This document shows positions 1 to 4,931 of a stretch of DNA of 64,000 nucleotides, in pieces. Both the position numbers and the translations under genes were made by a program. The DNA lies in NCBI RefSeq assembly GCF_007970665.1, contig NZ_CP042430.1, forward strand, positions 4,898,001 through 4,962,000, read 5' to 3'. The notes under the pieces were generated by a model, which ran no database searches, was not told the DNA's origin, and saw only the letters and a program-made list of their open reading frames with translations. Positions within the stretch are counted from its first letter, which is position 1; each line of letters starts with the position of its first letter. Source of the DNA: Baekduia soli (GTDB taxonomy: Bacteria; Actinomycetota; Thermoleophilia; Solirubrobacterales; Solirubrobacteraceae).

Positions 1-3073
<3,073 letters not shown>

Positions 3074-3150
3074 TACGGCGACTCCTCGGGGGTCGAGGCG
3101 GGCAAACAGAGGGAGGCGTTTCGCACGGTGGCGCGAAGGCGCGACCTGTC

Positions 3151-3161
3151 AATCTAGCACA
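3151..3161 (-). promoter_or_regulatory. candidate extended -10 promoter for rpoB
   Basis: In the 275-base gap between the terC-like gene and rpoB, the minus strand carries TGTGCTAGATT, which fits an extended -10 (TGnTAGATT) about 78 bases upstream of the GTG start. No clear -35 box is visible. A similar GTGCTAG core lies upstream of the terC riboswitch. The gap has no convincing gene; the rest is GC-rich spacer and the hairpin at 3311-3340. Confidence 0.35.
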
Positions 3162-3310
3162 GGCCGAAGCGGACCCCCTCAGGGGCGGTCGACGCTCACG
3201 GACCCCGCCCCGGCGTCCGCGTATGTGGCGCGGAACGCATGCATCGGGCGGCTGCGACTATCGGTCGACGCGCGGCAGTGTAGCGGTGGACGTCGGCCTG
3301 CGCCAGCAGG

Positions 3311-3340
3311 GCGGGCCGGCACGTCCGCCGCCCGGCCCGC
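3311..3340 (-). terminator. stem-loop after terC-like gene
   Basis: A perfect 9-bp inverted repeat (GCGGGCCGG / CCGGCCCGC) with a 12-base loop lies 8 bases past the stop codon of the terC-like gene. No T tract follows, so this is either a weak or U-less terminator or an mRNA 3' end structure separating terC from rpoB. Confidence 0.4.
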
Positions 3341-3348
3341 GCGCCCCC

Positions 3349-4212
3349 TCAGGCGGCCGAGGGCTCGGCCTGCGCCAGGCGGCGGTCGCGCACCAGCGAG
3401 GCCACGACGCCCGTGCCGAGCACGAGGGCGATCGCCGGGAGGCTGATCTCGGGCCCGAGCTTGCCGAAGGCCTCGCCGGCGGCCATCTTGATCCCGATGA
3501 GCACGAGCAGCGCCGCCAGGGCGGTCTTGAGGTAATAGAGGCGCTGGACCAGGTCGGCGACCAGGAAGAACAGCGGCGCGAGGCCCAGGAGGGCGAACGC
3601 GTTGGCGGCGAACACGATGAACGGGTCGTCGGTGATCGCCAGGATCGAAGGCACCGAGTCGATCGCGAACACGATGTCGGCGATCACCAGCGCCGCGAGC
3701 GCGGCGACCTCCACGCGGCCCGACAGCCGCGCCTTGAGCTTGTCGACGAAGGCCGTCTCCCCCGCGCTGTCGTGGCGGTGCTGGAACATCCGCCAGCCCG
3801 TCCAGATCAGCAGGGCGGCGAAGATGTAGGCGATCCAGCTCGCGTGGTGCAGGGCCGTGGCGCCGACGGCGATGAACACGCCGCGCAGGACGAGGGCGGC
3901 GACGATGCCCCAGGTCAGCAGGCGGTGGCGCTGGGCCTCGGGGATGCCGAAGCTCGTGAGGATGAGCAGGAAGACGAAGACGTTGTCGAGCGAGAGCGAC
4001 TTCTCGACGAGGTAGCCGGCGAAGTAGAGGCCGAACTCGCGGCCGCCCATGGCCATGAGCATGACGGCGCCGAAGCCGAGGGCGACGACCACCCAGCCGA
4101 GGCTCTGCAGCGTCGCGGTGCGCACGCTCATGCCGCCGCGCTCGCGCCGGGCGAGCCACAGGTCGAAGGCCAGGAGCACGGCGAGCGCGCCGATGAGGGC
4201 GATCCACTTCAT
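3349..4212 (-). CDS. TerC/Alx-family integral membrane protein (probable manganese exporter)
   Basis: A 287-residue protein with about seven to nine hydrophobic segments and the conserved TerC blocks EKSLSLDNVFVFLL and IADIVFAIDSVPSILAIT, whose acidic residues lie inside membrane segments. Family members such as Alx/MeeF-type proteins export Mn2+ and may help metallate secreted enzymes; tellurite resistance is the historical name. Function here is inferred from the family and from the candidate Mn2+ riboswitch directly upstream. It lies in the same orientation between rplL and rpoB, an unusual insertion into an otherwise conserved cluster, but has its own leader and a hairpin on each side, so it is probably a separate transcription unit. 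Confidence 0.9.
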   Translation of the reverse strand: MKWIALIGALAVLLAFDLWLARRERGGMSVRTATLQSLGWVVVALGFGAVMLMAMGGREFGLYFAGYLVEKSLSLDNVFVFLLILTSFGIPEAQRHRLLTWGIVAALVLRGVFIAVGATALHHASWIAYIFAALLIWTGWRMFQHRHDSAGETAFVDKLKARLSGRVEVAALAALVIADIVFAIDSVPSILAITDDPFIVFAANAFALLGLAPLFFLVADLVQRLYYLKTALAALLVLIGIKMAAGEAFGKLGPEISLPAIALVLGTGVVASLVRDRRLAQAEPSAA

Positions 4213-4260
4213 GGGGAGGGTCCTTTCGCGGGTGACAGGCGCTCCGCCGGTGCGGGGCGC

Positions 4261-4360
4261 GGGACTCGCGAAGGTTTGACCGCCCGCTGGGGGCCGCGCA
4301 CACCGGGCGGCCGTGGCCGCCGTGCTGACGAATGTGCGCCGTCGGGCTACTTCCCTTCGA
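4261..4360 (-). promoter_or_regulatory. candidate yybP-ykoY (Mn2+) riboswitch in terC leader
   Basis: The minus-strand leader reads GAAGGGAAGTAGCC at its 5' end (about 4346-4359), then TCGTCAGCACGG (about 4320-4331), and closes with CCTTCGCGAGTCCC (about 4261-4274). These follow the order of yybP-ykoY conserved blocks: GGGGAGUAGC, then GUCGUCA-AC-GG, then a CCU-CGCGAGACC-like element. GGGA and TCCC at the two ends can pair as the closing helix, a compensated version of the consensus. This class senses Mn2+ and commonly controls TerC/Alx and MntP exporters. The distance to the ATG (48 bases) leaves room for an expression platform. The call comes from reading the sequence; no covariance model was run. 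Confidence 0.72.
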
Positions 4361-4368
4361 CGTGCCGG

Positions 4369-4379
4369 AGGCTAGCACG
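4369..4379 (-). promoter_or_regulatory. candidate -10 promoter upstream of the riboswitch
   Basis: The minus strand has CGTGCTAGCCT, an extended -10 form (TG-C-TAGCCT) ending at 4369. Transcription starting about 7 bases downstream would begin near 4361, exactly at the 5' edge of the candidate riboswitch. No -35 element is obvious. Confidence 0.4.
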
Positions 4380-4490
4380 TGCTTGTGCGCCACCGCGACG
4401 CGTGCTCACGCCACCGGCGCCCCTGGGCGCGGGAGCGCCGATGGAGCGCAATGTCCCGGCGCGCGCCGAACACGAGCGCCCGAAGAACGA

Positions 4491-4544
4491 CGAAGGGCGC
4501 CCCGAGGGCGCCCTTCGCACAACCGGCGGCCGAATGCGGCCGCC
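4491..4544 (-). terminator. tandem stem-loops after rplL
   Basis: Two hairpins follow the rplL stop: GGCGGCCG/CGGCCGCC with loop AATG (4525-4544), and an 11-bp perfect stem CGAAGGGCGCC/GGCGCCCTTCG with a 5-base loop (4491-4517). The second is followed on the minus strand by a mildly T-rich stretch (TCGTCGTTCTTC). They probably terminate or attenuate the ribosomal-protein transcript ahead of terC and rpoB. Confidence 0.6.
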
Positions 4545-4550
4545 TGCGAG

Positions 4551-4931
4551 CTACTTGAGCTCGACGGAGGCGCCGGCCTCCTCGAGCTCCTGCTTGAGCT
4601 TGTCGGCCTCGTCGCGCTCCAGGCCCTCCTTGACGGGCTTGGGGGCCTCGTCGACGAGCGCCTTGGCCTCCTTGAGGCCCAGGCCTGTCGCGGCCCGCAC
4701 GACCTTGATGACCTGGATCTTCTTGTCGCCGGCGGCGGTGATGACGACGTCGACCGTCGAGGACTCCTCCTCGGCGGCGCCGCCCGCGTCACCCGCGGCG
4801 GCGGGGGCCGCGGCGGCCACGGCCGTCGCCGACACGCCGAACTCCTCCTCGAGCGCCTTGATGCGCTCGGAGAGCTCGAGCACGGAGATGCCCTTGAGCT
4901 CCTCGATCCACTCTGCGGTGCTGGTAGCCAT
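4551..4931 (-). CDS. rplL: 50S ribosomal protein L7/L12
   Basis: A 126-residue stalk protein that recruits translation factors to the ribosome. It has the N-terminal dimerisation helix region ([20 protein letters not shown]), an alanine-rich hinge at about residues 38-55, and the C-terminal domain with the conserved KIQVIKVVR and [12 protein letters not shown] blocks. It starts 6 bases after the rplJ stop, the normal rplJL arrangement in which translation of the two is coupled. Two hairpins follow. Confidence 0.97.

What the first reader, a model, noticed from the sequence alone, without database searches (positions are those of the whole stretch)
3311..4379. Mn2+ riboswitch-controlled TerC exporter inserted between rplL and rpoB
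rplJL and rpoBC are usually adjacent. Here a terC-like gene with its own promoter, candidate yybP-ykoY leader and flanking hairpins separates them on the same strand. Read-through could couple manganese status to RNA polymerase levels, or rpoB may need a separate promoter (3151-3161).
Basis: partly seen in the sequence, partly recalled or inferred. Interest (0 to 1): 0.6.

Follow-up and report, generated by a model that had tools for sequence, protein, structure and literature searches.

The report
Manganese RNA switch before terC
The stretch before this bacterium's terC metal-transport gene looks like an RNA switch of the manganese-sensing kind, in a shortened form that the standard RNA library overlooks here, and its place between two core genes looks accidental rather than a link to RNA polymerase.

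Summary
The leader is real and is best read as a manganese riboswitch of the E. coli alx type. Rfam's yybP-ykoY model scores it 8 bits (cut-off 45). A covariance model from 16 family leaders (R1) finds the E. coli alx leader (E 2e-7) and 59 places in 54 of 296 genomes of the window's phylum. Of the 57 not used to build it, 55 have a readable downstream gene; 54 of these precede TerC, P-type ATPase, GDT1, Na/Ca exchanger, M48 or M50 genes. Pairs covary (22 of 27); the adenosine matching the Mn ligand is invariant (75 of 75); helix P2 is missing in 75 of 75. The P1.1 3' strand can pair with the Shine-Dalgarno stretch, so Mn2+ probably turns translation on. Coupling to RNA polymerase is not supported: rplL ends in strong hairpins, rpoB has its own -10-like element in 29 of 30 relatives, and the rplL-rpoB gap ranges from 230 nt to over 10 kb, with terC in it in 3 of 41 rows, all one genus.

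The parts
4481..4550 (-). two G+C-rich hairpins after rplL, the second a 13-bp stem (4518-4490) with tail CGUUCUUCG: probable rplL terminator
   Evidence: fold z -3.13, 2 of 200 shuffles as good; the only terminator-like site found in 3050-4600; letters checked
4369..4377 (-). -10-like element TGCTAGCCT of the terC promoter; transcript start about 4362 (inferred)
   Evidence: TANNNT starting 8-16 nt before the aptamer in 56 of 74 related leaders, 0.027 expected
4264..4363 (-). aptamer: P1.1, L1, P1.2, P3.1, L3, P3.2, P4; no P2
   Evidence: R1 96.9 bits, but this leader is one of the 16 in the model; 22 of 27 pairs with changes on both sides over 75 sequences
4326..4326 (-). L3 adenosine in CGUCA matching the N7 ligand of Mn2+ (A41 of L. 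lactis)
   Evidence: A in 75 of 75; mapping by the order U39 C40 A41.. U44 C45 given in PMC9190785 (passages)
4348..4353 (-). L1 5' strand GAAGUA; A4352 stands where the set mostly has G and changes together with the position of A4276
   Evidence: pair table GG 55, AA 15, CG 4, AG 1 of 75; 0 of 2000 permutations reach the mutual information
4267..4274 (-). CCUUCGCG: 3' strand of P1.1 and its extension, alternative partner of the Shine-Dalgarno strand
4221..4230 (-). CGCGAAAGGA: Shine-Dalgarno stretch, complementary to 4267-4274 with one bulged A
   Evidence: metal-free fold pairs it with the P1.1 3' strand, -76.8 against -70.0 kcal/mol with P1.1 forced
3349..4212 (-). terC, 287 aa, TerC/Alx-type membrane protein; the only TerC match in the genome
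   Evidence: Pfam PF03741 157 bits; 97 of 264 aligned positions identical to E. coli Alx; whole-genome Pfam search
3151..3161 (-). rpoB -10-like element TGTGCTAGATT
   Evidence: GTG[C/G]TANNNT in 29 of 30 family rpoB loci
1..3073 (-). rpoB, neighbour and not part of the switch; runs off the window
   Evidence: Pfam RNA_pol_Rpb2 domains

Best explanation
terC is a stand-alone transcription unit. Transcription starts at about the first nucleotide of a P2-less, alx-type manganese aptamer (4264-4363). Without Mn2+ the 3' strand of helix P1.1 (CCUUCGCG) pairs with the Shine-Dalgarno stretch (CGCGAAAGGA) and translation is off. When Mn2+ bridges loops L1 and L3 (through the invariant L3 adenosine), P1.1 is stabilised, the Shine-Dalgarno stretch is freed, and TerC is made, which exports Mn2+ or passes it to exported enzymes. 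The place between rplL and rpoB is incidental. Shown by comparison: the fold, its conservation, the gene association, the potential for two competing pairings. Inferred: metal identity, ON direction, transcript start, TerC's transport activity.
For: Leader found before terC in 17 of 30 family loci. R1, built from 16 family leaders without any E. coli sequence, finds the alx leader at E 2.2e-7 in 21 kb. Of 57 phylum hits not used to build R1, 55 have a readable downstream gene: TerC 29, P-type cation ATPase 12, GDT1 7, M48 3, Na/Ca exchanger 2, M50 1, unassigned 1. 93.9% of pair cells form standard pairs against 69.9% shuffled and 34-51% slid; 453 double-changed cells against 137 shuffled. Mn-site adenosine and AGUA of L1 invariant in 75 of 75. 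P1.1 3' strand pairs better with its own downstream stretch (mean -13.6 kcal/mol) than with other loci's (-10.8; Wilcoxon p 2e-10) or shuffled ones (-10.1), 73 of 75 loci. Metal-free fold of the window leader is the OFF pairing. TerC 37% identical to Alx.
Against: RF00080 scores only 8 bits. 13 of 30 family TerC loci have no R1 hit, three of them (L009, L011 and the partial L015) with TerC 58-66% identical. The 57 hits were found with the model, so invariance of its core is partly built in. Relatedness inflates pair and permutation statistics. The window's own P1.1/Shine-Dalgarno match ranks only 22 of 73 against swapped partners, probably because of a bulged A. Its whole leader folds no better than shuffled (z -0.26). 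In L163 the ATPase begins some 420 nt behind the aptamer. No metal or expression data.
Confidence: 0.83

Rival explanations
1. The leader senses Mn2+, and terC transcripts run on into rpoB, so that high Mn2+ raises RNA polymerase.
For: Same strand; hairpins between terC and rpoB are no stronger than chance, so read-through is possible.
Against: rpoB has its own -10-like element in 29 of 30 relatives; terC lies in the gap in 3 of 41 rows, and in two of these with further genes behind it; a translational switch would by itself change read-through little (inference).
Confidence: 0.06
2. The leader responds mainly to alkaline pH or to another divalent ion (for example Ca2+), with Mn2+ secondary.
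For: E. coli alx reporters respond to pH 8.5 alone as well as to Mn2+ (PMC9603457, passages); some downstream families (Na/Ca exchanger, cation ATPase, GDT1) are also linked to Ca2+ by name or literature listing; the window clade has A-A in place of G-G in L1.
Against: The adenosine that matches the N7 ligand giving Mn2+ preference is invariant (75 of 75; PMC9190785, passages).
Confidence: 0.09
3. The leader is just a G+C-rich transcription start region with chance hairpins.
For: Rfam gives no gathering hit and the fold energy is not unusual.
Against: Covariation, gene association and the alx match.
Confidence: 0.02

Closest known systems
E. coli alx leader (pH- and Mn-responsive, yybP-ykoY class)
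   Same: Found by R1 at E 2.2e-7; same L1 (AGUA), L3 (CGUCA..ACG / CCGG), no P2; precedes a TerC-family gene whose product is 37% identical
   Different: L1 has G-G where the window has A-A; longer P4; the Shine-Dalgarno pairing found here is weak in alx by the same script (-9.7 kcal/mol, rank 45 of 73)
Rfam RF00080, Manganese riboswitch (yybP-ykoY), and the L. lactis / X. oryzae crystal structures
   Same: P1.1 switch helix, L1 and L3 docking loops, Mn-sensing adenosine (passages); TerC, ATPase and GDT1 as targets (passages)
   Different: Four-way junction with P2 in RF00080 and the crystals; three-way junction here; RF00080 does not reach its cut-off
C. glutamicum terC (cg2157) yybP-ykoY leader
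   Same: terC target; an actinobacterium; listed as observed with mapped RNA-seq ends (PMC3890552, passages)
   Different: Listed with 49 bits from Rfam as of 2013; not fetched or aligned here

Membership tests
yybP-ykoY manganese riboswitch (RF00080) | Match to the family's covariance model at gathering score | tested here: not met
   8.0 bits against 45. E. coli alx gives no RF00080 row at E up to 5 and mntP gives 41.6 bits, so the model is a poor test for this subtype
yybP-ykoY manganese riboswitch (RF00080) | Mn-ligand adenosine in L3 within UCANN(U/A)C | tested here: met
   A4326; 75 of 75
yybP-ykoY manganese riboswitch (RF00080) | Four-way junction with helix P2 | tested here: not met
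   Linker between P1.2 and P3.1 is 4-9 nt in 75 of 75, alx included
yybP-ykoY manganese riboswitch (RF00080) | Located upstream of Mn export or homeostasis genes | tested here: met
   terC here; 50 of 55 readable independent hits precede transporter families (TerC, P-type ATPase, GDT1, exchanger) and 4 precede M48/M50 genes
yybP-ykoY manganese riboswitch (RF00080) | Binds Mn2+ and changes expression | not testable with these tools
   needs probing or reporter assays
alx-type (P2-less) manganese riboswitch | Shares a profile with the E. coli alx leader | tested here: met
   R1 finds alx, 36.8 bits, E 2.2e-7 in 21 kb
alx-type (P2-less) manganese riboswitch | P1.1 3' strand can compete for the Shine-Dalgarno stretch | tested here: inconclusive
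   Strong over the whole set and in the metal-free fold, but prediction only; the window ranks 22 of 73 and alx 45 of 73 in the swap control
TerC family (PF03741) | Match above Pfam's gathering score | tested here: met
   157.1 bits against 27.8
TerC family (PF03741) | Mn2+ export activity | not testable with these tools
   published for homologues (PMC13274385, PMC10550928, passages)

The most novel reading that the evidence does not exclude
The window leader belongs to a separate three-way-junction form of the manganese riboswitch, common in the window's phylum (taken to be Actinomycetota) but missed by Rfam's model, with its own regulon that includes membrane metalloproteases (M48, M50), a distinct L3 (CGACAnACUG) in front of GDT1 genes, and, in the window's family, a co-varying A-A replacement of the G-G pair in loop L1 that could shift metal affinity.
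Probability: 0.4. Interest if true: 0.55.

Novelty: new member of a known kind. Interest (0 to 1): 0.4.

Why it matters
RF00080 hit 4 of 149 genomes of this phylum, none over its cut-off; R1 hit 54 of 296 in another draw (both with the tool's stricter filters), and in 20 R1 loci scanned RF00080 gave no match at E up to 1. Manganese control in these bacteria is therefore probably under-annotated. A P2-less aptamer also asks whether the four-way junction seen in the crystals is needed for L1-L3 docking, and the M48 and M50 genes behind four of the 55 readable leaders suggest a tie between Mn2+ excess and membrane protein quality control.

Tried and rejected
Rfam at gathering score on the window and whole genome: nothing. 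Rfam at E up to 10 on 1.7 kb: 7 weak matches far below their cut-offs, most on the rplL hairpins or the rplL gene; none to RF00080. Simple promoter scan: no sigma-70 match, uninformative here. Minimum energy of the whole leader: not unusual, rejected as a test. My first automatic choice of downstream reading frames picked wrong frames in several loci and was replaced, then checked by tblastn against a panel and, for the non-TerC ones of the first 28 and the 8 without a panel match, by Pfam. L010 was left out of the alignment for R1 because its P1.1 does not pair well; R1 still finds it (52.1 bits), but its P1.1 strand is cut to 3 nt. In the first promoter comparison 8 of 30 rpoB loci were left out; all 30 were counted later. 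In the gap survey 4 duplicate rows were dropped. The E. coli mntP leader is not found by R1 at E up to 10. Of 36 terC-relative loci with named records R1 hits 3 at E up to 0.01, all labelled as actinobacterial; Actinomadura, also actinobacterial, has none. Coupling to rpoB: rejected as above. Two papers on this riboswitch (PMC4376352, PMC11270866) are not held, so I could not check whether they already describe the P2-less form.

Full report
What is there. It is the only TerC match in the 5.2-Mb genome, and the only R1 hit at E up to 1 in that genome is its leader. The nearest named relative found, a Conexibacter metagenome bin with terC 88% identical, places the window in or near Conexibacter: Actinomycetota, Thermoleophilia. 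That placement is an inference from one hit; the genome search gives no names, so 'the phylum' below is taken to be Actinomycetota.

The leader. Rfam gives nothing at gathering score for the window or the genome; with 191 bases searched, RF00080 appears in the right place and strand at 8.0 bits, E 2.2. Upstream of terC homologues of the family the same motif is plain by eye: UCGAAGGGRAGUAnCCC, CGUCAnnACGG, CCCGG, GRAACCUUCG, then a Shine-Dalgarno stretch. Sixteen leaders were aligned, a structure was written by hand and model R1 built. R1 hits 17 of 30 family TerC loci, upstream of terC, at E 2e-10 or better; 13 have none.

Independent tests. R1 finds the E. coli alx leader, which RF00080 does not report even at E up to 5 in the same stretch; alx reporters respond to Mn2+ (PMC9603457, passages). 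In 296 genomes of the phylum R1 hits 54 (59 places); RF00080 hit 4 of 149 in another draw, none over its cut-off, and gave no match at E up to 1 in 20 R1 loci. In 529 kb (the window and regions around rpoB genes) the best hit other than the three terC leaders is 23 bits, E 0.014, so chance hits are rare. Of the 59 places two were in the training set; of the other 57, two run off the contig; 54 of the remaining 55 precede TerC (29), P-type cation ATPase (12), GDT1 (7), M48 peptidase (3), Na/Ca exchanger (2) or M50 peptidase (1), and one (L144) precedes an unassigned frame. TerC, P-type ATPase and UPF0016/GDT1 proteins are described as Mn exporters, and 328 of 333 screened bacterial UPF0016 genes as behind yybP-ykoY leaders (PMC13274385, PMC7380456, passages).

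Structure. Over 75 sequences (17 family, alx, 57 new) 93.9% of pair cells are standard, against 69.9% shuffled and 34-51% with slid partners; 22 of 27 pairs have changes on both sides. The alignment is fitted to the model and the sequences are related, so these numbers lean towards the structure, but the slid control does not come near. L1 AGUA and, in L3, the C, G, C and A of CGUCA/CGACA are invariant in 75 of 75. L. lactis Mn-site residues U39, C40, A41, U44, C45 (PMC9190785, passages) match the order U C A n n A C here. The position that I take for the G9-G93 pair described in X. oryzae (PMC6754395, passages) reads GG 55, AA 15, CG 4, AG 1; the window is AA. That matching rests on motif order, not on a structure alignment. 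The linker between P1.2 and P3.1 is 4-9 nt in 75 of 75, so P2 is missing and the junction is three-way; E. coli mntP and the RF00080 consensus do have P2.

Mechanism. The 3' strand of P1.1 is complementary to the Shine-Dalgarno stretch: own pairing -13.6 kcal/mol on average over 73 of 75 loci, -10.8 with other loci's stretches, -10.1 shuffled. For the window itself the rank is a modest 22 of 73, for alx 45 of 73. The window's metal-free fold is the OFF pairing, 6.8 kcal/mol better than with P1.1 forced (no metal or tertiary energy is counted). An ON switch acting on translation fits this and what is reported for E. coli mntP (PMC9603457, passages). Direction and metal are inferred.

Setting. 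The rplL side ends in two strong hairpins. A TANNNT element starts 8-16 nt before the aptamer in 56 of 74 leaders. rpoB carries GTG[C/G]TANNNT within 130 nt upstream in 29 of 30 family loci, whatever lies before it. Family genomes were drawn evenly by the tool; 51 of the 53 with an rpoB match were looked at (52 rows). The rplL-rpoB gap could be measured in 41 rows: 10 of 400 nt or less, 11 of 401-1100, 4 of 1101-2000, 16 over 2000; 4 rows have no rplL within 12.5 kb and 7 are cut by contig ends. terC lies in the gap in 3 of 41, all from one genus; in the other two a 583-598 aa protein (the first with Vgb-lyase/NHL-like repeats by Pfam, the second without a Pfam match), and in one also a frame with an MFS transporter domain, lies between terC and rpoB. 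The insertion is thus one case of a loose region, and coupling to RNA polymerase is unlikely, though read-through is not excluded.

Limits. 13 of 30 family TerC loci lack an R1 hit. No expression or binding data exist here. Papers were searched for a three-way-junction form (3 papers, listing only) and for actinobacterial Mn riboswitches (listings; C. glutamicum passages); by title and start of abstract none of those listed describes this subtype, which is weak evidence that it is unreported, since key papers are not held.

Noticed in passing
L048 1501-1596, L065 1501-1597, L148 2210-2307, L066 1501-1596: Mn-type aptamers (48-57 bits) directly precede M48 (L048, L065, L148) and M50 (L066) peptidase genes; HtpX, an M48 protease by recall, co-purified with TerC proteins in B. 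subtilis (PMC10550928, passages).
   Followed up: partly
L143, L149, L153, L156, L158, L162, L166: Seven aptamers with a different L3 (CGACAnACUG instead of CGUCAnnACG) all precede GDT1-family genes.
   Followed up: partly
window 3151-3215 and upstream of rpoB in L067-L100: Upstream of the rpoB -10 element a TCCGTG[A/G] stretch is kept in 29 of 30 loci and a GCCC/GGG hairpin-like pattern in 27 of 30, even where the genes before it differ; possible regulator site or terminator.
   Followed up: partly
L072 918-2669, L073 7403-9199: Proteins of 583 and 598 aa lie between terC and rpoB in two relatives and are missing in the window; the first has Vgb-lyase/NHL-like repeats.
   Followed up: partly
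window 4340-4362: The 5' strand of P1.1 can form a local hairpin GUCG..GGG/CCC..GAC with the junction linker, present in 8 of 16 leaders of A1 and in the metal-free fold; a possible anti-P1.1 element.
   Followed up: partly
L144 371-1234: A good aptamer hit (50 bits) before a 288-aa frame without any Pfam match.
   Followed up: no
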